Of a DNA stretch of 64,000 bases, positions 22,671 through 54,569 are shown piece by piece (positions within the stretch are counted from its first letter, which is position 1; each line of letters begins with the position of its first letter). The notes beneath the pieces are model-generated. The model was not told the origin of the DNA. It ran no database searches and saw nothing but the letters and a program-made list of their open reading frames with translations. Both the position numbers and the translations under genes were made by a program. Source of the stretch: Acidobacteriota bacterium (GTDB taxonomy: Bacteria; Acidobacteriota; Terriglobia; Terriglobales; Acidobacteriaceae); NCBI GenBank assembly GCA_003225055.1, contig QIAU01000144.1:124001-188000 (forward strand), in the 5' to 3' direction.

Positions 22671-22738
22671 AGATTTCAGATTTTAGACTGCAACTTTAGA
22701 ACCGGATCTAAAATCTGAAATCTGACTAAAGTCTGCAA
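22671..22738. repeat. heptamer-built inverted repeat between cysM and mec
   Basis: Units AGATTTC, AGATTTT and AGACTGC run at 7-bp spacing. The arm 22671-22687 is perfectly inverted at 22707-22723 (17-bp stem, 19-base loop), followed by more heptamer-like units up to 22738. Member of a family of seven such spacers in this window. Confidence 0.8.
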
Positions 22739-22756
22739 TCGCTAAAATCGTCTTCC

Positions 22757-23188
22757 ATGTTGAAGATCCCTCAAAAGGAATATGTGGCCATCCGGCAGCA
22801 CGGCGAGGAAACCTATCCCCACGAGTGTTGCGGGGTTCTCCTGGGCACCGCGGATGGGGACGAGCGCGTGGTTACCTCTTCTGCCCGGTGCGGGAATACT
22901 CGGGTTGATTCGCCTCACAATCGTTACCATATCGATCCCAAGGAGCTGGTGCGCATTCAGCGTGAGGGCCGCGATCGAGGTGAGGATATCGTCGGCTTCT
23001 ACCATTCGCATCCTGACCATCCGGCGCGCTGGTCTCTCACTGATCTGGAGGAAGCGCACTGGCTGGGTTGTTCTTACGTGATCACGAGCGTGGCCAAAGG
23101 CAAAGCGGACCTGACGAATTCCTTCGAGCTTGCCGGGGATGGGGAAAGTCAAAAGAAGTTCCTGGACGAGCAGATCCAGATTGTCTAG
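22757..23188 (+). CDS. mec: JAMM-type metallopeptidase (Mec-like CysO-cysteine hydrolase)
   Basis: A 143-residue zinc isopeptidase of the MPN/JAB fold. The catalytic set is complete: Glu23 in YPHECCGVLLG, then His83, His85, Ser93 and Asp96 in GFYHSHPDHPARWSLTDLEE, matching E-(n)-HSHx7SxxD. In Mycobacterium the homologue releases cysteine from the CysO-cysteine adduct. The gene order cysM-mec-cysO-moeZ supports the same role, and it may also trim the C-terminal tail of the CysO precursor found here. ATG 22757 follows closely on the heptamer hairpin. Confidence 0.9.
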   Translation: MLKIPQKEYVAIRQHGEETYPHECCGVLLGTADGDERVVTSSARCGNTRVDSPHNRYHIDPKELVRIQREGRDRGEDIVGFYHSHPDHPARWSLTDLEEAHWLGCSYVITSVAKGKADLTNSFELAGDGESQKKFLDEQIQIV

Positions 23189-23341
23189 CGGGGGCACACC
23201 ACACGTAGGCCAGCCGCTCCCGGCTGTCCGGTCTGTCCAATCGGCGGAGATTTCAATTGGCAGGGGAAAGCTGCTATAAAGGCGGTTAAAACCCCGCTGA
23301 ATCCAAAGCTTAGCTGTAGGCATCACTACGGAATGGAGAGC

Positions 23342-23701
23342 ATGGCCAAGATTCACATCCCAACGCCGCTACGACAGTACGCGGACAAGCACGCAACGGT
23401 CGAAGTCAACGCCGGCACAGTCGGAGAGGCGCTAACCGGGCTCGTGAGCAAGCATCCTGACTTGCGCCGTCATCTTTATACTGATGAAGGCAAGCTCCGG
23501 GCCTTTGTGAACGTGTATCTGAACGACGAGGACATCCGCTACCTGCAAAAGGAAGGCACTGCTTTAAAGGACAATGATAGTATTTCCATCGTGCCCTCCA
23601 TCGCTGGAGGCAGCCAGGATATTGACGAAGTGGCGAATTTGAGGATTGTCGAATTGAACTCCGCCCTACCAACGTGCTGTTGTCCTGCCTGTTGCTGTTG
23701 A
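23342..23701 (+). CDS. cysO: CysO/ThiS/MoaD-type sulfur carrier with a Cys-rich C-terminal extension
   Basis: A 119-residue ubiquitin-fold sulfur carrier. Residues 1-90 fit the CysO branch: MAKIHIPTPLRQYADKHATV, then LVSKHPDLRRHLYTDEGKLR with VNVYLNDEDIRYLQ, and SISIVPSIAGG. In working carriers the chain ends at the Gly-Gly (89-90 here), which is adenylated and thiocarboxylated. Here 29 more residues follow, ending PTCCCPACCC with six cysteines in the last nine. Processing by the adjacent JAMM peptidase, as for QbsE by QbsD in Pseudomonas, or a past frameshift past the natural stop, could explain this. ATG 23333 is an alternative start. Confidence 0.88.
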   Translation: MAKIHIPTPLRQYADKHATVEVNAGTVGEALTGLVSKHPDLRRHLYTDEGKLRAFVNVYLNDEDIRYLQKEGTALKDNDSISIVPSIAGGSQDIDEVANLRIVELNSALPTCCCPACCC

Positions 23702-23755
23702 CCGTCCGAAATTCGTCAATCCGAAAATTTCAAAATGCGAGAATTTGAGGCTTTC

Positions 23756-24928
23756 ATGGCCACTACAACTGACGTCAGAGGCGAGCCGGCAACGCTTAAC
23801 AACGACGAAATCCTGCGCTACTCGCGCCACCTGATCATGCCCGAGGTCGGCATGGAGGGTCAGCAGAAGCTGAAGGCCGCGCGTGTGCTCTGTATCGGGG
23901 CAGGCGGACTGGGCTCGCCGCTGGCCTTGTATCTCGCGGCTGCGGGCGTGGGTACGCTTGGCATGGTGGACTTCGACGTGGTGGACTACACCAACCTGCA
24001 GCGCCAGATCATCCACACGACTGCCGATGTCGGCCGGAAAAAGCTCGAATCCGCAGGGGACAAGCTGAAAGCCATCAACCCGTTTTTGAATCTGCGGAAG
24101 TTTGAAACCAAGCTGACCAGCGAAAACGCGCTCGAACTCTTTCGCCAGTTCGACATCGTCGCCGATGGTACTGACAACTTCGCGACCCGTTATCTGGTAA
24201 ATGACGCCTGCGTGCTCACCGGTAAGCCGAATGTCTACGGCTCGATCTTCCGCTTTGAAGGACAGGCCAGCGTGTTCGCGACCAAAGAAGGCCCGTGCTA
24301 TCGCTGCCTGTATCCAGAACCGCCACCGCCGGGGCTCGTTCCCTCCTGCGCCGAAGGCGGAGTGCTCGGCATTTTGCCCGGACTGGTAGGTGTGATGCAG
24401 GCCACCGAAGTCATCAAGCTGATTCTGGGGAAGGGTGAGCCCCTGATCGGCCGCCTGCTGCTGATCGACGCCCTGGGCATGAAGTTTCGCGAACTCAAGC
24501 TGCGCAAGAACCCCGATTGCCCGGCCTGCGGCACGCATCCGACAGTCACGAAGTTGATAGACTATAACGAGTTTTGTGGAATTCGCGGCGAGGAGAAGCC
24601 GGTGGAATCAAGCGTGTCGGAAATCCAAGTGGAAGAACTGAAGCGCCGTCTGGACGCGGGCGAACCGTTGTTCGTGCTCGATGTCCGCGAGCCGCACGAA
24701 TATCAGATCTGCAACATTGGCGGGCACCTGATTCCGCTCGGCGACTTGCCGAAGCGGGTGCACGAACTGGATTCCAGCCGCGAGATCGTCGCCCATTGCC
24801 GCTCCGGCGTGCGCAGTGCAAAGGCGGTTGCTTTCTTGCGCCAAGCGGGATTCCGCAAGGTGCACAACTTGGCCGGAGGCATTCTCGCCTGGGCTGACCG
24901 CGTCGATCCGAAGATGCCGAAATACTAG
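23756..24928 (+). CDS. moeZ: MoeZ-like adenylyltransferase/sulfurtransferase
   Basis: A 390-residue E1-like enzyme that adenylates the C-terminal glycine of sulfur carriers and transfers sulfur to it. Residues 15-280 are the MoeB/ThiF domain: ATP-binding GAGGLGSPLALYLAAAGVG near 48-66, DFDVVDYTNLQRQ, zinc cysteines Cys181/Cys184 (CYRC) and Cys255/Cys258 (CPAC), and the SCAEGGVLG loop. Residues 290-388 are a rhodanese domain with active Cys348 in AHCRSGVRSAKA. Start 23756 is preferred to 23735. It is the last gene of the cysM cluster and should charge CysO, and possibly MoaD or ThiS as well. Confidence 0.93.
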   Translation: MATTTDVRGEPATLNNDEILRYSRHLIMPEVGMEGQQKLKAARVLCIGAGGLGSPLALYLAAAGVGTLGMVDFDVVDYTNLQRQIIHTTADVGRKKLESAGDKLKAINPFLNLRKFETKLTSENALELFRQFDIVADGTDNFATRYLVNDACVLTGKPNVYGSIFRFEGQASVFATKEGPCYRCLYPEPPPPGLVPSCAEGGVLGILPGLVGVMQATEVIKLILGKGEPLIGRLLLIDALGMKFRELKLRKNPDCPACGTHPTVTKLIDYNEFCGIRGEEKPVESSVSEIQVEELKRRLDAGEPLFVLDVREPHEYQICNIGGHLIPLGDLPKRVHELDSSREIVAHCRSGVRSAKAVAFLRQAGFRKVHNLAGGILAWADRVDPKMPKY

Positions 24929-25113
24929 TGGTGGCCGCGCCTGTTCCTGACGAGGAGAGCTGGCGCACCGCTGAGGCGGCGCCCTGATACGTTCACCAAG
25001 TAACCGGGATCACATAGCGTCATATATGCCGGTGAGATACTGCTTACCTCCCCTGTTTACGATCAGTAGGAGGGGCAATCCTGTCTTGGTATCTGCTGGT
25101 CGTAACTTGTCTT

Positions 25114-25796
25114 TTGTCTTTTGGCCTCTGTGCCTGGCGCAGAACAACGCTACTGCTCAAGGTAAAGCGCGCGGTTTTTATAACCGGACAGCAAGTCATG
25201 GGAGTATCGGGCGGCGGCGGTTCCAGCCAGGCGTTCGCCACCGCGGGGCTAGGGCTAGGTGGAGCGCGCCCACAAGCCGCAGAAATCATTAAGACTTTTG
25301 GCGAGCGGTGTCCGGAAGTTATCGTCAACAGCAAACAGGAGAAAGCCGATTACGTAGTCCTCCTCGACCCTGAAGGAGGAAGAGGCATTTTTCGCAAGGG
25401 ACAACCAGGCGGCGCGGTCTTTGAATTAAATTAAACTTTGAATTAAATTAAACAAAGAATGGTGATCCGAACAGCTTATGGCCATTCTACTTGGCTGCCG
25501 GGCAATTCAGTCAAAGGTGCTTGCGACGGGACCAGGAAAGACTGGCCAGCCTGAATTCAGCGCTCTGCAACATCGAGCTCCGAGAGCCTGCAGAATTTCC
25601 GATCCCCCGCCCCGCCTCCGCCACCAAGGCCCCCACTGCGGAATTAGAGGAATTGCAGATAACATCGCCTCCCGCTGGCGCCCATATTGAGATCGATGGA
25701 GACTTTGTTAGAAGTACCTCTTCGACGACAGGACTTGCGGGGAGCACCCGCGTGCTCCCCTCTATTTTTTTGGAACCGGTTCGGACTACTTGGTAG
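25114..25796 (+). pseudogene. exported protein with PEGA domain, split by a tandem duplication
   Basis: The first frame encodes RAVFITGQQVMGVSGGGGSS, then AAEIIKTFGERCPEVIVN and EKADYVVLLDPEGG, and ends prematurely at AVFELN within an AT-rich duplication. The 17-bp unit TTTGAATTAAATTAAAC occurs twice at 25420-25453. In another frame coding resumes as KNGDPNSL (about 25455). It then runs through a Pro/Ala linker into a PEGA-like domain (LEELQITSPPAGAHIEIDGD, FVRSTSSTTGL) that fades at 25796. The order (N-terminal domain, then PEGA) matches an acidobacterial family I know from memory. An upstream frame change in the signal peptide is also likely. The PEGA end overlaps a strong terminator. Confidence 0.65.
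25739..25771 (+). terminator. strong intrinsic terminator
   Basis: GGGGAGCAC and GTGCTCCCC form a 9-bp perfect stem around CCGC, followed by TCTATTTTTTT. It terminates the broken PEGA gene and precedes a convergent gene. Confidence 0.85.
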
Positions 25797-26184
25797 AGTC
25801 GGCTGACCTCATTTCGGGGGGCTCGTTGCCTAGCGCCAACGCGAACTTCTTCCCGGCAAACCGGATTTCACTGACCGACTTGCTGCCGTCGGTGTTCTTG
25901 TTGATAACCACGGCATCGTTGCTGGATCTGTCGTTCAGAGCAAGCACGCGTGCCGGCGCCTTGGCCAGCACCTTCTTGCCCTGCTTAATGCTCAGCTCCA
26001 CGTTGGGGCCAGCACCTTCCCACTGCACCTGGTATTGGCCCGGTGCGAGCTGGCTGCCATTCACCTGCGCCGCATTGAACAGCTCCATCGAGGCTTTGTG
26101 GTTGTCGCTGCCGGCAAAAGCACTGACTGTCAGCAGCAGTGCGAGGGCTGGCACCATAATTTTGGAACTCGACGAGAATTTCAT
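25786..26184 (-). CDS. small secreted protein
   Basis: A 132-residue protein with a clear signal peptide: KIMVPALALLLTVSAFAGSD, cleavage near residue 25. The mature domain is beta-rich: ELFNAAQVNGSQLAPGQYQV, then QWEGAGPNVELSIKQGKKVL, and EIRFAGKKFALALGNE near the end. The NGSQLxPGQYxVxWxG pattern recurs in small exported acidobacterial proteins (recalled, not searched). Probably periplasmic; function unknown. Convergent with the terminator at 25739-25771. Confidence 0.82.
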   Translation of the reverse strand: MKFSSSSKIMVPALALLLTVSAFAGSDNHKASMELFNAAQVNGSQLAPGQYQVQWEGAGPNVELSIKQGKKVLAKAPARVLALNDRSSNDAVVINKNTDGSKSVSEIRFAGKKFALALGNEPPEMRSADSTK

Positions 26185-26774
26185 ACTGCTCCTTGTCCTC
26201 CCGATACGTCGGGAACCGTTTGCAGGCGGCCCGCCTTGGCCACGCGCTGTAGCTTGCGTTTCGCCGCGAATGGCCTACAATGCTCGACCGGGGTTCAGTG
26301 AAAAGAGCCGGGCCACAAGACCTCGCGCTCTCGCTTTAGGGATTGTCCTCGCCTGGGCCGCCAAACCGTAGACGGGAACGATCCCTGAACCCTTCCACCC
26401 TTGTAGTGAAACCGGAAGAAACGTCGTCCTTCCGGTCCCCGCAGTTAGCATCAAGATACGCCGGTGTTCCTCACGAAATTCCCCACAATCGCGAGTTATC
26501 GGGTTGGACGATAGCTTTCCAGTCGCGTTAGCAAAATTAGTGCTGCACAGTGCGAACTGGAAATAACAGGTAAATGTCTTGGAATGTCAGCTCAACCTCG
26601 GTGGATTAAATATGCGGATTTCCTATGTGTGTAGTCGGCAGCTAACGCCGGCCTCGGGTAGGAATGCATTTCAGCACGCCTGAACCGCCTGCTGGGAAAA
26701 ACGTCGAATTCGTGTCAGAGAATCGCTTTCGCAATCCCGCAGCAGTGCAATCGGCGCTTTAGCCGCTAAGGTGG
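26185..26774. other. 590-bp intergenic stretch
   Basis: Between two minus-strand genes. Short ORFs here show no protein-like pattern, and no tRNA, strong terminator or clear repeat was seen. It should hold the promoter of the small secreted protein gene (right of 26184). Confidence 0.6.
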
Positions 26775-27734
26775 CTACTCAATTTTCAATACCACTTTGC
26801 CGAAATTCTTGCGCTCCAGAAGCAGGCGATAAGCCTCCGTCGCACGATCGATAGCAAGCGTGTGCCCGACGATGGGGCGCAATTTGTCCGCATTGGCCCA
26901 CTCTGAAAGCCGCTTCCAGGCGTCGCTCATGAGTTGCGGGTTTTTCGACAACTGGGTGAGCCACAGTCCATGCACGCTGGCCCCCTTCCGATACAAAATC
27001 CGGGGATCCAGTTGTGCCGGCTGGCCCGTTGCCGAGCCGTAAGTGATGACGCGTCCAAAATCGCGCAAGCAACGAACGCTCTTCTGCACATGCTCGCCAC
27101 CGAGCATCTCGAAGACCACATCCACACCTTCGCCTCGCGTCAACTCATGGACGGCTTGCTGGTAATCCTGCGCTTTGTAGTTGATGGTGTCTAGGAGTCC
27201 CAGCTTCTTTACTTTCGACAATTTGTCTTCAGACGAGGAAGTGCCATACATCTTGACCCCGAGCAACTTGCCGATCTGGACGGCCGCGGTGCCAACCCCG
27301 CCCGCCACGGCATGAATCAGCACGCTGGCTATGCGCCCCTCGGGAGGTTGCAACAATGCCGCTTTCCAGTAGGCAAAATAAGCTGTGAAGTAGTTCACGG
27401 GGAAGGCGGCTGCTTCCACGGCACTCCAGCCGTCTGGGACGGGCCAGAGCAGTTCGGGCCGCGCCGCTAAGCGCTGGGCAAAAGCACCCCATTGCGTGTA
27501 CCCCATGACCCGCTTGCCGGTATCTTCGCGCACTCCGGCAAACTCCCGGCCGGCGATGATCGGGGGATCGGGAAGACCCGGGTAGCCGCCGGATGCGGTA
27601 AGAACGTCGGCGAAATTGACCCCGGTCGCCGTCACTTTAACCAGTACTTCTTTCGGCCCGGGTTGTGGCTCGGGAACATCCTGCCACTCCAGAACTTCCG
27701 GCCCAGCCCAGCGAGGTATCACCATCGCTTTCAT
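26775..27734 (-). CDS. zinc-independent MDR-family quinone oxidoreductase
   Basis: A 319-residue medium-chain dehydrogenase/reductase of the NADPH:quinone-reductase type. The N-terminal GroES-like part reads VLVKVTATGVNFADVLTASG, then YPGLPDPPIIAGREFAGV. The NADPH-binding half has VLIHAVAGGVGTAAVQIGKL (AxxGxxG) near 137-156 and DVVFEMLGGEHVQKSVRCL. The catalytic-zinc cysteine and structural-zinc cysteines of alcohol dehydrogenases are absent, as expected for this subgroup. Substrate unknown. It stands alone. Confidence 0.9.
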   Translation of the reverse strand: MKAMVIPRWAGPEVLEWQDVPEPQPGPKEVLVKVTATGVNFADVLTASGGYPGLPDPPIIAGREFAGVREDTGKRVMGYTQWGAFAQRLAARPELLWPVPDGWSAVEAAAFPVNYFTAYFAYWKAALLQPPEGRIASVLIHAVAGGVGTAAVQIGKLLGVKMYGTSSSEDKLSKVKKLGLLDTINYKAQDYQQAVHELTRGEGVDVVFEMLGGEHVQKSVRCLRDFGRVITYGSATGQPAQLDPRILYRKGASVHGLWLTQLSKNPQLMSDAWKRLSEWANADKLRPIVGHTLAIDRATEAYRLLLERKNFGKVVLKIE

Positions 27735-28054
27735 GGCCTAGGAGTGTAGCAGGCAGATCCGAGCCGAATCGGAAGGCGCGGCAATGCACGCGGTTGCGGG
27801 TCAGAATGGAACTTCCGTACCGGGGGGACGTTCCCTTCCCCTTTTCAGGTGCCCTGCTTTCGGCCCGGGTATATACTTCGGCTGGAATAACTTTTGTGGT
27901 AACCGCCGGCTGAGTCGGGCCGGCACGGAGCGTCTGTTTATTCTTTAGATTCTTAGGCTCCGTTTTTAGATCGCTGGTCTCTTAGGGTCAGTCGAGGCCA
28001 GCTCGGGAGGTTTTGCCGCCCTTGCGAGGCAAACCACCCGAGGGAGGGCCTTTC
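27735..28054. other. 320-bp divergent promoter region
   Basis: Lies between the quinone oxidoreductase (minus) and the PIN-TRAM gene (plus). It contains GC-rich inverted pieces (GCCGGCTGAGTCGGGCCGGC near 27903-27922) and T-rich tracts, but no ORF of note. Promoters for both genes are expected here; none could be assigned with confidence. Confidence 0.5.
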
Positions 28055-29161
28055 GTGGACTTAGTTCTTATTCGTCTCCTATTTATCATCTTCGTTGCTA
28101 TCACCTGCTATCTGATCGAACCGTTCGGACTTCCCTCCAAATTGGATGCAGCAGCTGTCGGAGGGCTCTTCGGATGCATCATTGTCGTCTTCGAATGGCG
28201 TCTACGCATGATGAGCCTCAAGCGGCTGATTGGGGCTGCCATCGGCAGTGTGCTTGGCATTTTCGGTGCCTATCTGTTTGCGATTGTGATTCGGAACAGT
28301 TTGCCGGCGGGTCCCACGCAAAGCTTCCTCATGCTGATGGTCATGTTGCTGATGGCCTACGTGGGCCTGATCGTGGGGGCTAACAAGGGCGACCTGCTGA
28401 ACCTGGCCGCCCTCGGCGGCATCTTCGGCGGTGAAAAGCAAGCCAAGAAAAGCTACAAGATTCTGGACACCAGCGTCATCATCGACGGCCGTATTGCCGA
28501 CATTGCCGAGACCGGGTTCCTCGACGGCATCATGGTCATCCCGCAGTTCGTATTGCGCGAGTTGCAGCTGGTAGCCGACTCGGCCGACTCGCTCAAACGA
28601 AACCGGGGCCGTCGCGGCCTGGACATCCTGCAGCGATTGCAGAAAGTCGCTTCGCTCAACATCCAGATTGTCGAAGACGACTTTCCGACCATTCGCGAAG
28701 TGGATATGAAGCTGATCGAGTTGGCCAAGCTGTACGAAGGCAAGATTGTCACCAACGATTTCAATCTGAACAAAGTCGCGCAGCTGCAGGGCGTGGAAGT
28801 CCTGAACATCAACGAACTGGCGAACGCGCTGAAGCCGATCGTGCTCCCGGGCGAGACCATGAAGGTCTTCATCCTGAAGGAGGGCAAGGAGTACAACCAG
28901 GGCGTAGCTTATTTGGACGACGGGACGATGGTGGTGGTCGACAATGCGCGTAAGATGATCGGCAAGAACGTTGACATTTCGGTGACGTCGGTTTTGCAGA
29001 CCACTGCGGGCAAGATGATCTTCGGAAAGTGGGACGAGCGGCTGTCCGGACGCGTGGAACCTGCGCGTCCCGTAACCATCCCTCCTGCCGTTCCGCCTGT
29101 ACCGAGCGTTGCTCCTGCGGAAACCAAGAAGCCGTTCATGGCGGAACGGCCCATCGAATAA
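28055..29161 (+). CDS. PIN/TRAM-domain membrane protein (YacL-like)
   Basis: A 368-residue protein. A GTG at 28055, about 8 bases after GGGAGGG, is preferred to ATG 28013. It starts with four membrane segments ([69 protein letters not shown]). Next is a PIN nuclease domain: [32 protein letters not shown] and [18 protein letters not shown] carry the acidic metal ligands. A TRAM RNA-binding domain follows ([20 protein letters not shown]). The C-terminus is Pro-rich. The family is conserved in bacteria with long-standing but unproven links to RNA metabolism. Confidence 0.92.
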
Positions 29162-29209
29162 ATTGTGCAAACGGAGAGTGAGGTTCGCCAGTCTTCGTAC
29201 TGTGTACTG

Positions 29210-29575
29210 TTATTCCGTGGGAATTGCCGAGCCTACCGCGATTGTGTCTCCCTGAACTGAGCCGGTAACTTTGGCTTTCTGCCCTGCCAAGTACCCGAGA
29301 TCGTCAGCGCGACCGCTCAGTTGATAAGTCTTCTCTCCGGCCACAAGCACGTAATGTGCACCCTTGCGTTGACAGGTGCGGGTACACTCCTCCGCACTCT
29401 TATCGGGCAATTTATGCCGCGGACCACAAAATGAATCGCTAATGATGCCTACAAAGGTGTTCGCATCCGCCTGGCCCATTTTGAGCGGCTTGTCATGGGG
29501 ACCCCTAACCGGCTGCTGGGCCAGTGTTGTCCCCATTACAAACAAAATGACTGCGGCCAGGGTGGGCCCCCTCAT
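29210..29575 (-). CDS. small secreted protein
   Basis: A 121-residue protein with signal peptide MRGPTLAAVILFVMGTTLAQ. The mature part contains FVGIISDSFCGPRHKLPDKS and ECTRTCQRKGAHYVLVAGEK, then KTYQLSGRADDLGYLAGQKA and a beta-strand end VTGSVQGDTIAVGSAI. Three cysteines lie in a motif (ISDSxCG...C..xC..KGAxYVLV) that I recall from acidobacterial exported proteins. The C-terminal part resembles a small OB-like fold. Function unknown. Convergent with the PIN-TRAM gene. Confidence 0.82.
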   Translation of the reverse strand: MRGPTLAAVILFVMGTTLAQQPVRGPHDKPLKMGQADANTFVGIISDSFCGPRHKLPDKSAEECTRTCQRKGAHYVLVAGEKTYQLSGRADDLGYLAGQKAKVTGSVQGDTIAVGSAIPTE

Positions 29576-29870
29576 AGACTTCTCCCAGGTTGAGTCCGTG
29601 CCTGCCAGGCTGCCCTGGCTTCAAGACACGGGAAAGTAAGACCCTCGGACGAAAGTTACGCGCAAAGCTTCCGCATCTTGGATGCCATCTTCTGGGTGCA
29701 GGCAGTCTGTCCTAACTAGACAAGTCACGGGGCGTTACACTCTTCCGGCTCGCATGGTGCGAGGGGCCGTAGCGACTCAGGGGTTTCGCTTAGGCAGAAC
29801 AAGGCAGAACCGTCCTCCTGGGAGGCAAATTGGCTCTAAAGCTATACTCTTGCATTCTCCTTAGGACTAA

Positions 29871-30277: not shown

Positions 30278-30372
30278 ACTGCAAATCTTGTCATTCCGAG
30301 TGAAGCGAGGAATCTGCACGCCCTGGTGAATTTGAACTGGCGCCACTACGCTCGTATACTGATCGCCCCGCC

Positions 30373-31092: not shown

Positions 31093-31096
31093 CTAT

Positions 31097-31667
<571 letters not shown>

Positions 31668-31676
31668 AAGCCTTTT

Positions 31677-32426
31677 TTATAGAGATTCGAACTCGCCCGC
31701 CAATCTCAGGTGCTCCGCTTTAGCCGCTTGCACAAAGGCCCGGAAGATCGCTCGCGATGCTTCATCTTCCATCGCTCGTTCCGGGTGCCACTGCACGGCC
31801 AGAACAAAATGATCGGGAGCGGCGCCTTCCAAGGCCTCAATGATTCCGTCTTCGGGGCAGCGGGCCACGACTCTGAGGCCGTCCCCCGCAACATCTGCCG
31901 CCTGGTGGTGGCTGGAGTTGACGCTAAGGGAGCGGGCTTCAGGTCCAACATTGAGAATCTTCGCTAATCTCGAACCGGAATCAATTTCCACCGTATGCGC
32001 GATCGGCACTTGCCGACCCGCGGCGTGCTTGATTCGAGACTCGATGTGCTGGATCAAGCTTCCTGTGCGGTAAACGTTGAGAATCTGCAGCCCATAACAG
32101 ATGCCGAGCAGCGGCTTGCGCATGTTGTACGCGTCCTGCAGCAGCAATTCGTCAACCGTATCGCGCCTAGGATCAGCAGGGTTGGTTTTCGGGTGTCGTT
32201 CGGAGACCCCGTACTTCGAGGGATCGACGTCGGCGACGCTTCCCGGAAGAAGGACTCCGTCGCAGCGCTCGATGATTTTCATGACTTCGGAAGGCGATTT
32301 GTCCAGCGGGATGCGGATGGCTTGTCCGCCAGCCATTTCGATGGCCCGCTCATATTGCGGCAGAGAGCCTTCCACGTATTCGGGATTGGTCGAAAGCGGC
32401 AGCGGGATCGCGATCCGTGCAGGCAT
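31677..32426 (-). CDS. gamma-glutamyl-GABA hydrolase-like class I glutamine amidotransferase (peptidase C26)
   Basis: A 249-residue protein of the PuuD-type branch. The catalytic Cys110 is in PLLGICYGLQILNV. The His/Glu pair is in FVLAVQWHPERAMED (about 216-219). ERCDGVLLPGSVADVDPSKY (54-73) is the family's oxyanion segment, and PAARIAIPL-type sequence opens the protein. The usual role is hydrolysis of gamma-glutamyl amides; the substrate is not provable here. The gene converges on ispF with about a 10-bp gap. Confidence 0.88.
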   Translation of the reverse strand: MPARIAIPLPLSTNPEYVEGSLPQYERAIEMAGGQAIRIPLDKSPSEVMKIIERCDGVLLPGSVADVDPSKYGVSERHPKTNPADPRRDTVDELLLQDAYNMRKPLLGICYGLQILNVYRTGSLIQHIESRIKHAAGRQVPIAHTVEIDSGSRLAKILNVGPEARSLSVNSSHHQAADVAGDGLRVVARCPEDGIIEALEGAAPDHFVLAVQWHPERAMEDEASRAIFRAFVQAAKAEHLRLAGEFESL

Positions 32427-32462
32427 AGATTCATTGTAGCGAGTTCCTGACGGCGATGGTCA

Positions 32463-32780
32463 CTATGAGTGCAGCGAGGAACCTGCTGTTTGCTTCTCAA
32501 GGGACCAGAGCGCTTTCGCCTGACGATAGTGCCGAACCTCCATAACCAAGGAGACCAGAAGCACAATGACTGCCACGACGACCGCACACGGCGCGGCGAT
32601 ATTGCGGTAGGCCAGGGTCAGATTCGGCCGGATCCGGTACACCCGGGAGTAGATCAGGACCCCGACAATTCCCAGCAGCAGACTAACTGCGAAAGAAAGC
32701 AAAGTGATGAGGAACGTCACCAAGAGTGCCCGACTGGGCACCAGGATTAGCCGCGGCTTGCGCCCCTGAGTTGCTGGCAT
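32463..32780 (-). CDS. small two-helix membrane protein
   Basis: A 105-residue protein with a basic N-terminus. Two membrane segments follow: VTFLITLLSFAVSLLLGIVG and AAPCAVVVAVIVLLVSLVME, separated by VLIYSRVYRIRPNLTLAYRN. The C-terminus is charged and short. No family recognised. It is upstream of the glutamine amidotransferase on the same strand and divergent from the 32849 gene, so the pair may be co-transcribed. Confidence 0.65.
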   Translation of the reverse strand: MPATQGRKPRLILVPSRALLVTFLITLLSFAVSLLLGIVGVLIYSRVYRIRPNLTLAYRNIAAPCAVVVAVIVLLVSLVMEVRHYRQAKALWSLEKQTAGSSLHS

Positions 32781-32848
32781 GGTTCTACCCTACAACATGC
32801 GCCGCTTCTGCGCCCAGCCTTGCCGCGCGGGTGCGCTACAATAACCCA

Positions 32849-33586
32849 ATGTCTCACGCGGCTCCCGCGATTACGCGCTCTCCCGCAGACGTAGTGCGCC
32901 AGACGCCGGTTTCGCAGGCTTCCAACGGGGTTTGCTACGCCGTCGCCGGCCAGATCACGCTACCCGAGGCGGATTTGGAGCGGATGATTGCCGCCGTTCC
33001 GCGTTCCGCGGCGGCAGCTCTGGAGCGCAAGGCCTACTATTTTGTTCCGCTTACAGTGAGCCAAGGCGACGATACTGTAATTGCCGATCGGTACGACATC
33101 GCACTCAGCGACAACGCCGTTTGTCACCGCAACCTGAACCTGGGCGACTCGCAGTGCGTGTTCATCTCCACGCGGTTGATGGATGACAAGTTCTCGGTCG
33201 CTTTCGAGTTCTACATCAATGTGGGCCATGCCATTGTGGAGCGCGCCGGGGTGTCGCAGGCGTTTGCGGATTTGGCCTGGAGGCAGGTGGAGTCCGGGGT
33301 GCGAGGCGAAACTTCCCTGGATGCCTGGGAAGCGCGCAAACTGGCCACCGGACATGGCCCGGACGCCGAAAAGTACAAGAACGAATTCCTCGCTGCAGCG
33401 TTTGCCGACGCAATCTCCATTTACCTGCTATCGCTTTTTCTGGATGTTGATTATTACGACCTGCGCGAACGCGACTACCCGCTGCTGGCACCCACTCCGC
33501 TAAGCGAGCGTCTTCGCAAGGTGGCTGAGCTATTCCCGCCCAATTCGGGATTCGACTTCGCGATTTACTACAAGCGGCGGACCTGA
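32849..33586 (+). CDS. conserved hypothetical soluble protein
   Basis: Start 32849 (MSHAAPAITRSPADVVRQTP) yields 245 residues; the longer ORF from 32726 overlaps the divergent neighbour's coding region. No membrane segment is seen. Features are YAVAGQITLPEADLERMIAA near 31-50, an all-beta central part (YFVPLTVSQGDDTVIADRYD) and FEFYINVGHAIVERAGVSQA. The tail is DLRERDYPLLAPTPLSERLR, then FPPNSGFDFAIYYKRRT. I do not recognise the family, but codon use and composition are those of a real gene. It precedes ispE after a short repeat. Confidence 0.75.
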   Translation: MSHAAPAITRSPADVVRQTPVSQASNGVCYAVAGQITLPEADLERMIAAVPRSAAAALERKAYYFVPLTVSQGDDTVIADRYDIALSDNAVCHRNLNLGDSQCVFISTRLMDDKFSVAFEFYINVGHAIVERAGVSQAFADLAWRQVESGVRGETSLDAWEARKLATGHGPDAEKYKNEFLAAAFADAISIYLLSLFLDVDYYDLRERDYPLLAPTPLSERLRKVAELFPPNSGFDFAIYYKRRT

Positions 33587-33591
33587 AATGA

Positions 33592-33611
33592 GCCACGGAT
33601 TTACACGGATC
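33592..33611. repeat. dispersed GCCACGGATT-type repeat, copy 3 (half)
   Basis: GCCACGGATTTACACGGATC matches the left arm of the copy at 20781-20829. No right arm is present. It lies in the short gap before ispE. Confidence 0.6.
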
Positions 33612-33630
33612 TAAGTACAATCGTTCCTCC

Positions 33631-34650
33631 ATGATGGTCACGGTTCGGTCCTTCGCCAAGATTAATCTCGGCCTGTCGATCGGTGCGCTTCGTGCTGATG
33701 GCTTCCACGAACTGGGCACGGTGTATCAGACCATCGCCCCCCATGACGTGCTGCGCGTGGGCATCGCGAAGGGCTCGGGGATTGAGATCCGCTGCCCGGA
33801 CCCGCGGGTACCGACTGACGAGACGAACACTTGTTATCGGACCATCGAACTCGCTATGGCCGCGCTCCGGGGTAAGGGACGGGTGTTGCTTGAAATCGAA
33901 AAGCGCCTGCCGGTGCAAGGCGGCTTGGGCGGAGCATCTTCCAATGCAGTAGCAGCGCTGTTAGCTCTCGAACGGGCACTGAAGAAACCACTCTCGGCTG
34001 TCAAGAAGCTGCGTATTGCGGCGGAAGTTGGCTCGGATCTGCCCCTGTTTCTGGTGGGCGGGACGGTGCTCGGCGTCGGGCGCGGCGAACAAGTCTATCC
34101 GCTGCCGGACTTACCTTCAACCTATTGCGTGCTGGCTGCCCCGGAGATTGGTATATCCACACCCAAGGCGTTTGCTGATTGGGATGCGATCATGGCAGGC
34201 CCAGCCGAGCGGCGCTCGACCGGACAGCCGGGGGCGGCTGTCCCGATGCGTAATCCAGGCAAATTGACGGTATCTACTCAGTCCGATAATATAGTTCAGT
34301 TCGGCCGCACCGTTTCTTCGTGGCTGAGTGGTTCATCCGGTGTCCCTGCCCGCGGCAGGGGCCGGGCCGAGACTCCGCTTCTCGACCTCGTCCGTACCGG
34401 GATCGAAAACGACTTCGAAAAGGTCGTCTTTCCCAAGTATCCCGAATTGCGCGAGGTGAAGCGTGTGCTTGAACGAGAAGGCGCACTATATGCGTCTCTG
34501 TCTGGCTCTGGTTCCGCTGTTTATGGCCTGTTTGGTGCGCGGGTGGAAGCCGATCAAGCCGCGGCTCGATTGCGAAAACAGGGCATCCCGGCACAGACGA
34601 CCGCCACTCTGACCCGAGAACAGTATTGGAAGAAAATTTTTTATTGTTGA
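33631..34650 (+). CDS. ispE: 4-diphosphocytidyl-2-C-methyl-D-erythritol kinase
   Basis: Fourth step of the MEP pathway: a GHMP-family kinase. It is 339 residues, about 40 longer than usual. Motifs are FAKINLGLSIGALRADGFHE at the N-terminus, the ATP loop LPVQGGLGGASSNAVAALLA near 93-112, and LYASLSGSGSAVYGLFGARV near the C-terminus. The extra length lies between about 190 and 250, where Gly/Pro/Arg-rich sequence is encoded by DNA with two palindromes (34222-34243 and 34344-34360). The last codons and the TGA lie in the left arm of a heptamer hairpin. The tRNA-Gln gene follows. Confidence 0.93.
   Translation: MMVTVRSFAKINLGLSIGALRADGFHELGTVYQTIAPHDVLRVGIAKGSGIEIRCPDPRVPTDETNTCYRTIELAMAALRGKGRVLLEIEKRLPVQGGLGGASSNAVAALLALERALKKPLSAVKKLRIAAEVGSDLPLFLVGGTVLGVGRGEQVYPLPDLPSTYCVLAAPEIGISTPKAFADWDAIMAGPAERRSTGQPGAAVPMRNPGKLTVSTQSDNIVQFGRTVSSWLSGSSGVPARGRGRAETPLLDLVRTGIENDFEKVVFPKYPELREVKRVLEREGALYASLSGSGSAVYGLFGARVEADQAAARLRKQGIPAQTTATLTREQYWKKIFYC
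34222..34243. repeat. palindrome inside ispE (GGACAGCCG / CGGCTGTCC)
   Basis: A 9-bp perfect stem around GGGG, in frame within a variable loop of IspE. Similar cores occur intergenically near 3290-3307 and 23213-23228. Confidence 0.75.
34344..34360. repeat. palindrome inside ispE (CCCTGCC / GGCAGGG)
   Basis: A 7-bp perfect stem with loop CGC, in frame within the same extended region of IspE. It resembles the 20-bp palindrome in the GGDEF gene (44329-44348). Confidence 0.65.
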
Positions 34651-34723
34651 TTTTTGATGGTTGATTGAAAATTAAGATGCCGACCGGTTGCCAAGCAACC
34701 ATCAGGGGATCAAAAATCAACAA
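34644..34723. repeat. heptamer hairpin between ispE and tRNA-Gln
   Basis: Units TTGTTGA, TTTTTGA, TGGTTGA and TTGAAAA are in register. The 15-bp arm 34644-34658 is perfectly inverted at 34709-34723, and an inner GATGGTTG/CAACCATC extends the stem. It includes the ispE stop codon and ends 8 bp before the tRNA. Confidence 0.85.
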
Positions 34724-34731
34724 TGATCGAC

Positions 34732-34805
34732 TGGGCCGTCGACTAATGGTAGGTCAAGTGCCTTTGGAGCACTTTGTCTAGGTTCGAATCCTAGCGGCCC
34801 AGCCA
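34732..34805 (+). tRNA. tRNA-Gln (anticodon TTG)
   Basis: A 74-nt cloverleaf. The acceptor pair is TGGGCCG / CGGCCCA, the discriminator G, and CCA is encoded. The anticodon stem AGTGC / GCACT encloses CTTTGGA, so the anticodon is TTG. The T-arm is CTAGGTTCGAATCCTAG. It is flanked on both sides by heptamer repeats. Confidence 0.96.
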
Positions 34806-34813
34806 GAAAAACC

Positions 34814-34883
34814 AGCTTTTAGCTCTTGCTTTTTCGCGTGGAGTTCAGGGGTTCAAGCATTAAGAGCTAAAGGCAAGAGCTAA
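34814..34883. repeat. heptamer hairpin between tRNA-Gln and prs
   Basis: Left units AGCTTTT, AGCTCTT and GCTTTTT are in register. TTAGCTCTTGC (34819-34829) is inverted as GCAAGAGCTAA (34873-34883), ending 3 bp before the prs ATG and likely covering its translation start. Confidence 0.8.
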
Positions 34884-34886
34884 TCC

Positions 34887-35912
34887 ATGGCCACTCTCGC
34901 GACAACCGCAGATAAGAAGGCGCCGGTAAGCCCGGAGGAGAAGCCCGAGCGCAAGCCTCAGCGCTCCCGTGTGGATGACAAGTTCAAGATCTTCTGCGGC
35001 ACGGCGAACGAGTCGCTGTGCGATGAGGTCTGCGCGTTTCTCGGCATGACTCGCGGCCAGGCAAAGGTGACGCGGTTCTCCGATGGTGAGGCTTATATCC
35101 AGATCCAGGAGAACGTGCGCGGCGCTGACGTATTCCTCATGCAGCCCACCTGTCGTCCGGTAGACATGCACCTGATGGAACTGCTTTTGATGATTGACGC
35201 CTTAAAACGAGCTTCGGCCCGCCGCATCACGGCGGTGATCCCCTATTTTGGCTATGCGCGCCAGGATCGCAAGGACAAGCCGCGTGTACCGATTTCCTCC
35301 AAGCTGGTGGCTGATTTGCTGACCACGGCCGGCGCGGATCGCGCGCTGGTCGTCGATTTGCATGCTCCGCAGTTGCAGGGCTTCTTCAATATTCCGGTGG
35401 ATCACCTGTTTGCTTCGCCTGTGCTCGTGGACTATTACAAGAAGCTCATTTTACCGCATCTCACCGTCGTTTCTCCTGACGCGGGGGGCGTGGAGCGCGC
35501 CCGATTTTTTGCCAAGAAGATGGATTCCGCCTTGGCTATCGTTGATAAGCGCCGGGTGGATGTGAACGTCGCGGAAGTCATGCACGTCATCGGCGATGTC
35601 AAAGGCCGCACGTGCCTGGTCATTGACGACCTGATTGATACTGCCGGCACCCTGGTCAAGACTGCGCACGCCCTGCTCGACGATGGCGCCACCGGCGTTT
35701 ATGCCTGCGCCTCGCACCCGGTACTTTCCGGGCCAGCGGTGGAAAATATTTCCAAGTCACCAATCACCGAGGTGGTGGTCACCAACACTATTCCGCTCTC
35801 CGAAGCCGCCCGCAAAGAGCCCAAAATCAGAGTGCTCACAATTGCAGGACTGATTGGCCGCGCCATTCAGTCGATTCATGAGGAAACTTCGGTCAGCAAA
35901 TTATTCATGTAG
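34887..35912 (+). CDS. prs: ribose-phosphate pyrophosphokinase
   Basis: Makes PRPP from ribose 5-phosphate and ATP. It is 341 residues, with about 30 extra Lys/Pro-rich residues at the N-terminus. Visible are TRFSDGEAYIQIQENVRGAD, VIPYFGYARQDRKDKPRVPI (ATP loop), VVDLHAPQLQGFF, VVSPDAGGVERARFFAK and the PRPP-binding LVIDDLIDTAGTLVKTAHAL. No clear Shine-Dalgarno is seen; the ATG lies at the edge of a heptamer hairpin. It probably shares an operon with rplY 16 bp downstream. Confidence 0.95.
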   Translation: MATLATTADKKAPVSPEEKPERKPQRSRVDDKFKIFCGTANESLCDEVCAFLGMTRGQAKVTRFSDGEAYIQIQENVRGADVFLMQPTCRPVDMHLMELLLMIDALKRASARRITAVIPYFGYARQDRKDKPRVPISSKLVADLLTTAGADRALVVDLHAPQLQGFFNIPVDHLFASPVLVDYYKKLILPHLTVVSPDAGGVERARFFAKKMDSALAIVDKRRVDVNVAEVMHVIGDVKGRTCLVIDDLIDTAGTLVKTAHALLDDGATGVYACASHPVLSGPAVENISKSPITEVVVTNTIPLSEAARKEPKIRVLTIAGLIGRAIQSIHEETSVSKLFM

Positions 35913-35928
35913 GCAGGAATCAGAAACT

Positions 35929-36678
35929 ATGGCTACAGCAACCGAGACGAAACCTGAAACCAATTTTCTGGAAGCGGAGCCGCGCCAGCCCGGCAACAAG
36001 AACGATGCCCGCCGGGTGCGCCGCAGCGGGAAGATTCCCGCGGTGGTCTACGGGGCCGGCAAAAATGCGGTGCCAGTCAGCGTGGACCCGCGGCAGGTCT
36101 CTCGGATTCTGCACTCCGAGAGCGGTCACAACACGATTTTCGACCTCGCCCTGGACGGCCAGCGCAGCAAGGCCATGATCGTCGATTGGCAGTACGAACC
36201 CATCAAGGGCGCGCTGCTGCACATCGACCTCAAGCGCATTGCCATGGACCAGAAGCTCAAGGTCCTGGTGCCGATCGTCCTCAAGGGCGAAGCGGCGGGC
36301 GTGAAACAGCAAGGCGGCATTCTGGAGCAAGTGCTGCGCGAGGTGGAAGTGGAGTGTTTGCCCGGCGACATCCCCAGCCACATCGATGCCGATGTGACCG
36401 AGCTGGTCTTCGGCAAGGTTTTGCGCGTGGCGGACCTGCCGCATGGCGAAAAGCTGAAGTTCCTTACCGACCCGAATCAGACCGTGGCTCACGTCACGGC
36501 GGTTAAGGAAGAAGTGGCGCCGACGCCGGAAGCCGCTGCCGCCGAAGCCGCGGCCGTTCCCACCGAGCCGGAGGTCATCAAGAAGGGCAAGCAGGAAGTC
36601 GAAGGGGAAGGTGCCGAGGAAGCTGCTCCCGAGAAAGCCGAGAAAGCAGAGAAACAGGAGAAGAAGGAAAAGAAATAA
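35929..36678 (+). CDS. rplY: 50S ribosomal protein L25/general stress protein Ctc
   Basis: Binds 5S rRNA. A 249-residue Ctc-type L25. The N-terminal part (KNDARRVRRSGKIPAVVYGA) is the RNA-binding domain. The TL5-like C-terminal domain includes DLKRIAMDQKLKVLVPIVLK and VEVECLPGDIPSHIDADVTE. The last 50 residues are an Ala/Glu/Lys-rich low-complexity tail. Start 35929 is chosen by homology (MATATETKPET); an upstream in-frame start overlaps prs. It follows prs, as in many bacteria, and precedes pth. Confidence 0.94.
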   Translation: MATATETKPETNFLEAEPRQPGNKNDARRVRRSGKIPAVVYGAGKNAVPVSVDPRQVSRILHSESGHNTIFDLALDGQRSKAMIVDWQYEPIKGALLHIDLKRIAMDQKLKVLVPIVLKGEAAGVKQQGGILEQVLREVEVECLPGDIPSHIDADVTELVFGKVLRVADLPHGEKLKFLTDPNQTVAHVTAVKEEVAPTPEAAAAEAAAVPTEPEVIKKGKQEVEGEGAEEAAPEKAEKAEKQEKKEKK

Positions 36679-36686
36679 CCGTCGTC

Positions 36687-36774
36687 GGTCTTTGGTCTCT
36701 GGTCATTGGTCATTGTTCTCTCTGGCCAACGGCCGGGGACAAAGAGGTAACTAGGAGTTAGCAGCTAAGAGCTA
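36687..36774. repeat. two heptamer arrays between rplY and pth
   Basis: Five units in register (GGTCTTT, GGTCTCT, GGTCATT, GGTCATT, GTTCTCT at 36687-36721) and three more of a different type (GGAGTTA, GCAGCTA, AGAGCTA at 36754-36774), 6 bp before the pth start. Confidence 0.8.
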
Positions 36775-36780
36775 AGCCGC

Positions 36781-37362
36781 GTGAAACTGATCGTTGGCCT
36801 GGGCAATCCGGGAATCGAATACCAGTTCACGCCGCACAACTTAGGATTTCTCGCCATCGATCGCCTCGCCGACGAATGGGGCGTGGACGTGAGAAACCGG
36901 AATTGCCGGGCACTGACTGCCCGGGCCGTTATCGGTGACCAGCAGGTTCTCTTGGCCAAGCCGGAGACCTACATGAACCTGAGCGGCCTGTCCCTGCGCG
37001 AGCTGCTGGCACAGCATGAGCTCAAGCCGGAGACGGATCTGATCGTCATTTATGACGAACTGGATCTGCCGCTGGGCACGATTCGCATTCGGCAACGGGG
37101 CAGTTCGGCTGGGCACAACGGGATGGAATCGGTGATCGGCGCGCTGGGTACGCAGCAGTTTTTGCGAATCCGTCTGGGAATCGCGCCGGAGAAGAAGGTC
37201 GCGGATGGCGTGAAATATGTGCTTACGCCCTTTCGCAAGAGACAACTTAAGGTCGTGGACGAGGTCCTCGACAAGGCTGCTGAAGCTGTGAAGGTGATTT
37301 TGACCGAGGGGCCGGACGCGGCGATGAATCGCTTCAACCGCAAGCCCGATCCGGAAGATTAG
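36781..37362 (+). CDS. pth: peptidyl-tRNA hydrolase
   Basis: Frees tRNA from stalled peptidyl-tRNA. It is 193 residues from a GTG start. Motifs are LIVGLGNPGIEYQFTPHNLG with the catalytic His18, LLAKPETYMNLSGLSLRELL, IVIYDELDLPLGTIRIRQRG and SAGHNGMESVIGALGTQQFL. The GTG lies just after a heptamer array. rpsF follows 25 bp later. Confidence 0.95.
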   Translation: MKLIVGLGNPGIEYQFTPHNLGFLAIDRLADEWGVDVRNRNCRALTARAVIGDQQVLLAKPETYMNLSGLSLRELLAQHELKPETDLIVIYDELDLPLGTIRIRQRGSSAGHNGMESVIGALGTQQFLRIRLGIAPEKKVADGVKYVLTPFRKRQLKVVDEVLDKAAEAVKVILTEGPDAAMNRFNRKPDPED

Positions 37363-37387
37363 AAGATTAGTGGTTGGGAGAAACGGA

Positions 37388-37786
37388 ATGAATCGCACTT
37401 ATGAATTGATGTTCATCGTCCGCCCGGACATGGCGGATGAAGATCTCGACAAACTGATTTCCACGCTGGAATCGCAGGTGACCACCTCGGGTGGAACCGT
37501 GAACGGCGTGGAGCGCATGGGCAAGCGTCGCCTGGCCTATACCGTTCGTCGATTTCAAGACGGCATGTACGTTCTGCTGACGGTTGAGGGTGGCGGGGCG
37601 CTGATTCACGAACTGGAACGCCGTCTGCGCGTGACCGAGCCAGTGATCAAGTTCCTCACCGTCCGGATTGACGAAGAGCGGAAGCGCCTGGACAAGATCA
37701 AGCAGATTCGGGACGCGCGGCGCAAGGCGGCACCCGCACCTGCTACACCCGAAGCTGGCGGCGAAACTACCCCGGCAACGCCCTAA
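37388..37786 (+). CDS. rpsF: 30S ribosomal protein S6
   Basis: A 132-residue primary rRNA-binding partner of S18. The family pattern is complete: RTYELMFIVRPDMADEDLDK, then GVERMGKRRLAYTVRRFQDG and MYVLLTVEG, and VIKFLTVRIDEERKRLDKIK. The last 25 residues are an Ala/Pro/Thr-rich tail. Start 37388 is chosen over 37370 by homology. It is separated from rpsR by a heptamer hairpin. Confidence 0.95.
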   Translation: MNRTYELMFIVRPDMADEDLDKLISTLESQVTTSGGTVNGVERMGKRRLAYTVRRFQDGMYVLLTVEGGGALIHELERRLRVTEPVIKFLTVRIDEERKRLDKIKQIRDARRKAAPAPATPEAGGETTPATP

Positions 37787-37790
37787 GAGG

Positions 37791-37853
37791 GTCGTTGGTC
37801 CTTGGTCGTTTACGGAAAAAGCCAATGACCAACGACTGACGACCAAAGACAAG
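37791..37853. repeat. heptamer hairpin between rpsF and rpsR
   Basis: Units GTCGTTG, GTCCTTG and GTCGTTT (37791-37811) face CCAATGA, CCAACGA, CTGACGA and CCAAAGA (37822-37849), largely complementary. It starts 5 bp after the rpsF stop and ends just before the rpsR ribosome site (AAGGAG). Confidence 0.85.
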
Positions 37854-37870
37854 TTTTACTAAGGAGCAAC

Positions 37871-38245
37871 ATGGCTGAAGAAACCAAGACAGCAACCCCT
37901 GAACCACCAGCCGCTGAAGCACAGCGGCCTGAAGGATCGCGTCCGGAAGGACAGCGCGAGAGTCGATTTGGGCCCCGTGGACCGCGTCCTGCCGGAGGTC
38001 CCGGCGGCGCCCGCGAAGGCGGCCGCAAATATTTTCGCCGCAAGAAGGTTTGCAAGTTCTGCGTGGAGAAGATCGAGGCGATCAACTACAAGGATGTGCG
38101 CCTGCTCTCGCAGTTCGTCGCGGAGAGCGGCAAGATTGTTCCGCGGCGCCTCACCGGCGTCTGCACACCTCACCAGCGGCGTCTCTCGGTGGCGATCAAG
38201 CAGGCGCGCAACATCGCCCTGCTGCCCTTCGCCGGCCGCGCGTAA
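37871..38245 (+). CDS. rpsR: 30S ribosomal protein S18
   Basis: A 124-residue protein with an unusually long N-terminal extension (about 55 residues, Pro/Arg/Gly-rich, ending [18 protein letters not shown]). The conserved core reads [20 protein letters not shown], then [20 protein letters not shown] and [20 protein letters not shown]. The Cys pair KFC plus the GVC cysteine fits the zinc-type S18. AAGGAG sits 7 bases upstream of the ATG. The next spacer is the longest heptamer array in the window. Confidence 0.95.
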
Positions 38246-38255
38246 AAACCTCGTC

Positions 38256-38361
38256 GGTCATTGGTCTTGGGTCATCGGCGGTCTTGGGTCATCGGCCATA
38301 GATAACCTGAGCCAGATGCCGCCTTGCCAACGACCAACGACCAACGACCAACGACCAACGA
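38256..38361. repeat. long heptamer array between rpsR and rplI
   Basis: Left arm: GGTCATT, GGTCTTG, GGTCATC, then after GGC again GGTCTTG, GGTCATC (a 17-bp piece repeated at 38263-38279 and 38280-38296). Right arm: five identical CCAACGA units at 38327-38361. The arms are largely complementary. The right end lies 20 bp before the rplI ATG. Confidence 0.88.
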
Positions 38362-50325: not shown

Positions 50326-50390
50326 GCGCCGCTCGGGGTTGATTCAAGAGACGGGAAGGGCGCACCGGAGAGGCAGATCAGGTAGGCAGA

Positions 50391-54514: not shown

Positions 54515-54545
54515 GTCCGAGACGGTTCGAGTCGAGGTTTTGTAT

Positions 54546-54569
54546 CAGGGTACCAGGGTACCAGGGTAC
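54546..54569. repeat. tandem CAGGGTAC x3
   Basis: Three perfect 8-bp units in the gap between acpS and the convergent GT39 gene, followed by a small GGTACGC/GCGTACC hairpin. Confidence 0.75.

What the first reader, a model, noticed from the sequence alone, without database searches (positions are those of the whole stretch)
22671..38361. Seven spacers around conserved genes are built from in-register 7-bp units
Spacers after cysM, ispD, ispE, tRNA-Gln, rplY, rpsF and rpsR are made of 7-base units that keep register though their sequence differs (GGTCATT, CCAACGA, CTGGAAA, AGATTTC, TTGTTGA, AGCTCTT and others). Five of them pair with an inverted arm to give stems of 11 to 17 bp or more (22671-22723, 34644-34723, 34819-34883, 37791-37849, 38256-38361). 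Cyanobacteria have heptanucleotide tandem repeats; I know of no description of this hairpin-forming kind around translation genes in Acidobacteria. A constant period with changing sequence suggests a shared generating process, or a protein that reads the period.
Basis: partly seen in the sequence, partly recalled or inferred. Interest (0 to 1): 0.75.

Follow-up and report, generated by a model that had tools for sequence, protein, structure and literature searches.

The report
Fast-changing seven-base hairpins between bacterial genes
Gaps between genes in these soil bacteria often hold hairpin-shaped DNA built from seven-base units, and sister species can carry quite different unit sequences at the same place, which points to an unidentified DNA process that works in steps of seven bases.

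Summary
Intergenic period-7 arrays exceed chance in the own genome (11 against 0.3 in shuffles) and reach 41 per 200 kb in a relative. One ribosomal operon of a relative is packed with them.

New here: diverse units share a skeleton, TYRG plus three letters, on the 5' arm. Variation within arrays falls mostly on one position, and unit order is not mirrored between arms. The same gap holds different hairpin families in related species. Stem mismatches show no RNA bias: G-U 248, A-C 250, against 16 and 1 in tRNA stems.

Best reading (0.4): DNA-level, 7-nt-stepped, arm-to-arm templated synthesis rebuilds palindromes in transcribed gaps where selection tolerates them; the enzyme is unknown. An RNA role for having some hairpin is not excluded (0.25). 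Terminators, known RNA families and Y1-transposase palindromes fit poorly.

The parts
22671..22723 (.). Hairpin behind the cysM-like gene: 17-bp perfect arms, unit AGATTTY, loop 19
   Evidence: arms; lag-7 run 22706-22725; z -5.5
31099..31154 (.). Array between ispD and ispF, CCAACGA units passing into AAACTGG units in the same register; no hairpin
   Evidence: (z 0.04)
34636..34724 (.). Hairpin between ispE and tRNA-Gln: 16-bp perfect arms, unit TTGATTN, loop 50
   Evidence: (z -2.7)
34819..34883 (.). Imperfect hairpin between tRNA-Gln and the PRPP synthase gene, unit AGCTCTT
   Evidence: sequence (z -3.1)
36687..36715 (.). Array GGTCTTT-GGTCTCT-GGTCATT-GGTCATT behind rplY
   Evidence: (z -2.6)
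37791..37849 (.). Imperfect hairpin between rpsF and rpsR, unit GGTCGTT / CCAACGA
   Evidence: (z -4.8)
38256..38361 (.). Imperfect hairpin between rpsR and rplI; the 3' arm ends in five perfect CCAACGA units
   Evidence: (z -3.0)

Best explanation
These are imperfect palindromes whose two arms are short arrays (mostly 2 to 5 units) of one degenerate heptamer, made and remade at the DNA level. In transcribed gaps just behind stop codons a strand folds back and synthesis copies one arm from the other in any 7-nt register. The unit is thereby spread over both arms (concerted change), unit order is not preserved, and one position per unit stays free. Selection removes the products from genes and mostly from divergent, promoter-bearing gaps. 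Shown here: period, arm architecture, skeleton, free position, unmirrored order, gap preference, replacement at fixed places, and no RNA-pairing bias. Inferred: fold-back templated synthesis as the mechanism, and lack of the hairpin nuclease SbcCD as a permissive condition. Not explained: the enzyme, why seven, why TYRG, and why one position is free.
For: Lag-7 excess in the own genome and relatives. Both arms share one degenerate unit but not its order (41 hairpins, observed minus permuted -0.01 +/- 0.32). Sister species at 91.8% and 90.6% identity carry different units in both arms of the rpsR-rplI hairpin; the neighbouring rpsF-rpsR gap of the first pair differs at 5 of 138 positions. Hairpin family at rpsR-rplI shows almost no phylogenetic signal (17 changes, shuffled mean 18.3). 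Mismatches G-U 248, A-C 250 in 228 stems and 19 against 22 in heptamer cores; tRNA control 16 against 1. Few arrays in coding DNA and fewer in divergent gaps. SbcD above its cut-off in 0 of 11 genomes, while it matches in 13 of 14 control genomes, 8 above cut-off.
Against: Genomes without arrays (G032, G017) lack SbcD too, so its absence cannot be the cause. Complementarity at the variable phase is 55 of 123 with 37.8 expected, which hints at some mirroring, though the best register was chosen. The fixed free position and the 5'/3' polarity are not predicted by simple fold-back copying. Hairpins may be too young for RNA selection to leave a mark. 121 of 233 arrays have no detected partner.
Confidence: 0.4

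Rival explanations
1. Selected RNA hairpins: each intercistronic gap needs some stable stem (to stop exonucleases, tune translation of the next gene, or mark processing sites). Any sequence that folds will do, so families are swapped freely.
For: Gaps fold strongly whichever family they hold: rpsR-rplI 37 of 53 with z below -2. In G006 0 of 22 divergent gaps fold so, against 36% of 155 co-directional and 46% of 37 convergent. A ribosomal operon of G006 is packed with arrays. In five rpsR-rplI gaps (L024, L171, L177, L181, L184) a ribosome-binding-like AGGAG lies at the end of the 3' arm.
Against: No G-U over A-C excess. No reason for a period of exactly 7. Some congeners have no hairpin at the same gap, e.g. 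L182 and L186 by eye, though no loss of function was tested.
Confidence: 0.25
2. Plain replication slippage: heptamer microsatellites that expand and shrink unit by unit, with inverted partners by chance or by insertion of the same repeat.
For: Adjacent units are more alike than permuted in long arrays: 10 seed-free arrays of other phyla, 0.495 against 0.388, 0 of 500 permutations, and 7 long arrays of this family, most variable letter 0.648 against 0.474, 1 of 500. Slippage is the published suggestion for heptamers (Mrazek 2007, as cited in PMC4679880 and PMC4692102; not read).
Against: In 194 short arrays of this family adjacent units are not more alike (0.165 against 0.180; variable letter 0.350 against 0.330, 44 of 500); short seed-free arrays of other phyla are not significant either (0.272 against 0.240, 68 of 500), so power is limited. 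Slippage alone does not give convergent arms, a common skeleton, or concerted change in both arms.
Confidence: 0.13
3. Sites read by a DNA-binding protein that recognises TYRG every 7 bp (nucleoid or topology protein); selection keeps the core and the spacing.
For: Shared skeleton, one free position, strand-symmetric mismatches, and placement behind genes.
Against: Array numbers range from 0 to 41 per 200 kb within one family, and whole sites are absent at orthologous gaps. No candidate protein was found; only four protein families were searched.
Confidence: 0.1
4. Palindromes mobilised by Y1 (HUH) transposases, like REP elements or TIRs.
For: Y1 transposases match in 9 of 11 genomes. Class 3 enzymes in Acidobacteria are said to be flanked by atypical structures in high copy (PMC6006769, section 27 read).
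Against: Of 20 stretches around Y1 genes, 3 hold any period-7 array (5 arrays in 69 kb); many have other, non-periodic palindromes instead. Copy number does not follow arrays: G032 has 4 enzymes and no arrays, G018 has 3 and 36, G210 has none and 3.
Confidence: 0.06

Closest known systems
GGGAATC (GGGANTN) heptamers of Xanthomonas and GGGGA(C/T)T of Nostoc (PMC4692102)
   Same: Intergenic heptamer arrays close behind the upstream gene, few between divergent genes, 70 and 75 convergent inverted pairs in two species, positions of the unit that vary, and length and sequence variation between related species. GGGANTN fits the TYRG frame with a free letter just before T (my reading).
   Different: There one G-rich unit per genome, proposed to form quadruplexes; here many unit families per genome, mostly without GGG tracts, swapped between orthologous gaps.
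TAACTGA direct repeats of Beggiatoaceae, cyanobacteria and Bacteroidetes (PMC4679880)
   Same: Heptamer, intergenic; its reverse complement fits TYRG (my reading).
   Different: One unit, mostly just before start codons, a single inverted case in the main genome (abstract); here many units and many inverted pairs behind stop codons.
Heptanucleotide long simple sequence repeats (Mrazek 2007; seen only as cited in PMC4679880 and PMC4692102)
   Same: Period 7 is the commonest longer period and slippage is proposed as the cause.
   Different: Short degenerate arms in hairpins, with no adjacent-unit likeness in the short arrays.
REP elements and TIRs of Y1 transposases (PMC3733652, PMC6006769)
   Same: Dispersed palindromes in gaps between genes.
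   Different: Those have conserved families and a linked transposase; the heptamer hairpins do not cluster at Y1 genes.

Membership tests
Heptamer simple sequence repeats | 7-bp tandem units, mainly intergenic, above chance | tested here: met
Heptamer simple sequence repeats | Slippage signature: neighbouring units more alike than distant ones | tested here: inconclusive
   Not seen in 194 short arrays, seen in 7 long ones of the family
Xanthomonas/Nostoc type heptamers | Convergent inverted pairs behind genes, rare in divergent gaps | tested here: met
Xanthomonas/Nostoc type heptamers | G-tracts able to form quadruplexes | not tested
   Most units listed lack GGG by eye; no count was made
REP / Y1-transposase palindromes | Arrays flank the transposase gene | tested here: not met
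   3 of 20 Y1 stretches hold any array
Intrinsic terminators | Stem followed by a T run on the transcribed strand | tested here: not met
   No plus-strand terminator-like site at the listed hairpins; 16 found in the region, 17.4 in shuffles
Known structured RNAs (Rfam 15) | Match above gathering score | tested here: not met
   Only the tRNA matches in the window
RNA structure kept by selection | G-U mismatches outnumber A-C | tested here: not met
   248 against 250; control 16 against 1

The most novel reading that the evidence does not exclude
An unidentified activity, present in several bacterial phyla, writes palindromes in steps of 7 nt: it copies a six-letter core built on TYRG and leaves one letter untemplated, on both arms, and rewrites whole hairpins between sister species. 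The period-8 and period-10 hairpins (7-letter core plus 1 or 3 free letters) would be other settings of the same machine.
Probability: 0.12. Interest if true: 0.93.

Novelty: new variant of a known kind. Interest (0 to 1): 0.62.

Why it matters
Why heptamers are the commonest longer repeats in bacteria has no settled answer (the published suggestion is polymerase slippage, and the 2015 Xanthomonas paper leaves the role open). Here the period is kept while the sequence is replaced within a genus, which gives a fast natural experiment on how bacterial palindromes arise and whether a polymerase, a missing nuclease or a reader sets the step of seven. It also warns that spacers in ribosomal operons of these bacteria can evolve very fast.

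Tried and rejected
Rejected: intrinsic terminators; known RNA families; Y1-transposase palindromes; reverse transcriptase as a required maker, since RVT_1 has no match in G018, G025, G045 and G049, which carry arrays; simple inverted duplication of one arm (order not mirrored). Considered and left: stop codons in all frames as the purpose (judged by eye only; CCAACGA, CAGTGGY and CGTTTCA arrays carry few stops; no count was made).

Led nowhere or weak: paper searches for Acidobacteria with heptamers (0 papers), Calothrix heptanucleotides, Koribacter with tandem repeats (1 paper), letters of the 10-bp unit (nothing to the point in the 15 of 2,929 papers listed). SbcC is uninformative: only 1 of 14 control genomes passes its strict cut-off. 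Family mapping on the tree uses hand-made regular expressions and counts 'other' as a state. The permuted controls used fewer restarts than the observed fit, which favours the observed value somewhat.
Full report
What was checked. The window is G000:C23:124001-188000 of a 7.4-Mb draft genome. In 316 kb of this genome intergenic lag-7 arrays number 11 against a shuffle mean of 0.3; lags 4, 5, 6, 8, 10 and 11 give 0-2, lag 9 gives 5. Genes were called with a home-made hexamer caller, checked only against known genes of the window: stops agree, some starts are off (rpsR).

Relatives. The same scan over 140 kb (G049) or 200 kb each gives 41 intergenic lag-7 arrays in G006, 36 in G018, 23 in G028, 22 in G025, 6 in G049, 5 in G045, 3 in G210 (another family), 0 in G032 and 0 in G017. 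Coding counts are 0-6. Lags 8 to 10 are also raised in some (lag 8: 11 in G018; lag 10: 9 in G025). G032 has the length I recall for Koribacter versatilis Ellin345; that name comes from memory. One exact unit pattern occurs in 6 of 199 genomes sampled over the phylum, the own genome included. So the feature is patchy even within the family.

Anatomy. Of 233 intergenic arrays 58 are 5' arms, 54 are 3' arms and 121 have no detected partner; 5' arms are T-rich (T 0.31, A 0.14), 3' arms A-rich (A 0.30, T 0.15). Aligning units by rotation gives one skeleton, T/C-Y-R-G-N-N-N: 4.67 bits over 112 arms against 2.79 +/- 0.09, maximum 2.94 of 20, when positions are permuted. The 121 unpaired arrays alone give 4.07 against 3.03, maximum 3.13 of 20. 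TYRG is in 132 of 233 units (permuted mean 56.2, maximum 72 of 200; reversed motif 37). In 48 arrays from other phyla it is in 21 (permuted 9.8, maximum 16), but the reversed motif also reaches 16 there, so the claim outside this phylum is weak. In 141 arrays of 26 nt or more one position carries most variation (0.253 against 0.017-0.104), and unit order does not mirror the other arm in 41 hairpins. At the variable phase 55 of 123 sites are complementary, 37.8 expected, with the best register chosen.

Place. In G006 arrays occupy 41 of 251 co-directional, 12 of 67 convergent and 6 of 74 divergent gaps; in six other genomes 63 of 488, 5 of 133 and 10 of 162, so convergent gaps are rich only in G006. 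In co-directional gaps the median start is 7.5 nt behind the stop codon. One 20-kb piece of G006 (L061) holds 18 of 82 arrays in 600 kb. Ten of its 29 called genes were scanned: nine ribosomal proteins (L5, S8, L6, L18, S5, S13, S11, S4, L17) and methionyl aminopeptidase.

Turnover. The gaps rplY-pth-rpsF-rpsR-rplI were read in 60 loci (own, 29 of the family including G006, 30 congeners of G006). Lag-7 runs are in 5 of 57, 10 of 59, 21 of 56 and 20 of 56 usable gaps. Depending on species the same gap holds CAGTGGY, AGTACCN, TTGATTN, CAGCTNT, TAGCTNC, GTCGTTN, a period-10 CACGGAT hairpin, another palindrome or nothing evident. In the pair L159/L161 (91.8% identity) the rpsR-rplI units differ in both arms (AGCTNTC against AGCYNCG) with an identical 3' flank, while the rpsF-rpsR gap differs at 5 of 138 positions. 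In L177/L187 (90.6%) three units of each arm differ at the same unit position. On a tree of 30 tips the changes of family number 17 at rpsR-rplI (shuffled mean 18.3, minimum 14 of 500) and 12 at rpsF-rpsR (16.2, minimum 12): almost no signal at the first, some at the second.

DNA or RNA. If pairing were selected in the transcript, G-U should be tolerated more than A-C. Stems were found in 228 of 1040 co-directional gaps, with 248 G-U and 250 A-C mismatches; convergent gaps (41 stems of 209) give 26 and 18. Cores of 53 heptamer hairpins give 19 and 22. The tRNA control gives 16 and 1 (acceptor 7 and 0, T stem 9 and 1; 26 tRNAs). Against a pure DNA reading, gaps fold strongly as a class and divergent ones do not (0 of 22 with z below -2), so selection for having some hairpin stays possible.

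Slippage. In 194 short arrays of the family adjacent units are no more alike than permuted ones (0.165 against 0.180), but 7 long arrays do show it. Seed-free arrays of other phyla show it when long (10 arrays), not when short (48 arrays, 68 of 500). Short arrays have little power.

Breadth. In these 80 stretches, chosen by a heptamer and thus biased, lag 7 leads outside the seed arrays too (46 in 62 non-acidobacterial, 14 in 18 acidobacterial stretches; other lags up to 13 give 0-11). Several arrays change sequence along their length in register, for example L194 and L229. Of 80 seed arrays 13 are 5' arms, 7 are 3' arms and 60 have no partner, so the polarity is weaker there.

Candidate makers. 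SbcD is above its cut-off in 0 of 11 genomes, with weak matches in 3; it matches in 13 of 14 control genomes, 8 above cut-off. SbcC is above cut-off in 0 of 11; the matches are about 50 residues in frames of 619 to 1322 aa, which I read as other ATPases, and only 1 of 14 controls passes. Reverse transcriptase has no match in four array-bearing genomes. Y1 transposases do not track arrays.

Literature. PMC4692102 (passages, sections 10 and 16) describes the nearest thing. PMC4679880 was read in abstract, introduction and section 24; PMC3733652 in passages and section 16; PMC6006769 in passages and section 27; PMC4060949 in passages. The searches listed no paper on heptamer hairpins in Acidobacteria; in what I read I saw no shared skeleton across unit families and no G-U/A-C test. 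This covers only the open library.

Noticed in passing
G006, G045, G018, G025 stretches; rpsR-rplI gaps such as L162-L166: Sibling hairpins with other periods: period 10 (CACGGAT plus three free letters) and period 8 (CACGGAG or CTCTGTG plus one free letter), again with arms in inverted pairs. They occupy the same gaps as the heptamer hairpins in related species.
   Followed up: partly
rpsR-rplI gaps of L024, L171, L177, L181, L184: An AGGAG of the TAGCTCC-type 3' arm lies just before the rplI start, so the hairpin could hide the ribosome-binding site.
   Followed up: no
whole genome G000: 42 Y1-transposase matches, many of them partial, in the own genome, against 0 in the same-genus G059 and 0-8 in the other nine genomes searched.
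   Followed up: no
L309, L310, L311, L325, L326: Y1-transposase genes flanked by non-periodic palindromes such as CCCACGTCTCGC and CCCAGGTTAGCGCCCC, which look like REP-type elements of this family.
   Followed up: no
11 genomes: The hairpin nuclease SbcCD was not found above cut-off in any of these genomes, array-rich or array-poor; the SbcD search matches 13 of 14 control genomes.
   Followed up: partly
rplY-pth gaps of most congeners of G006: This gap mostly holds a different, non-periodic palindrome (GGACAGCCGNGGGCGGCTGTCC type) rather than heptamers.
   Followed up: no
window 54542-54569, 25419-25453, 50371-50403: Other short tandem repeats of period 8 (GTACCAGG), 17 and 13.
   Followed up: no
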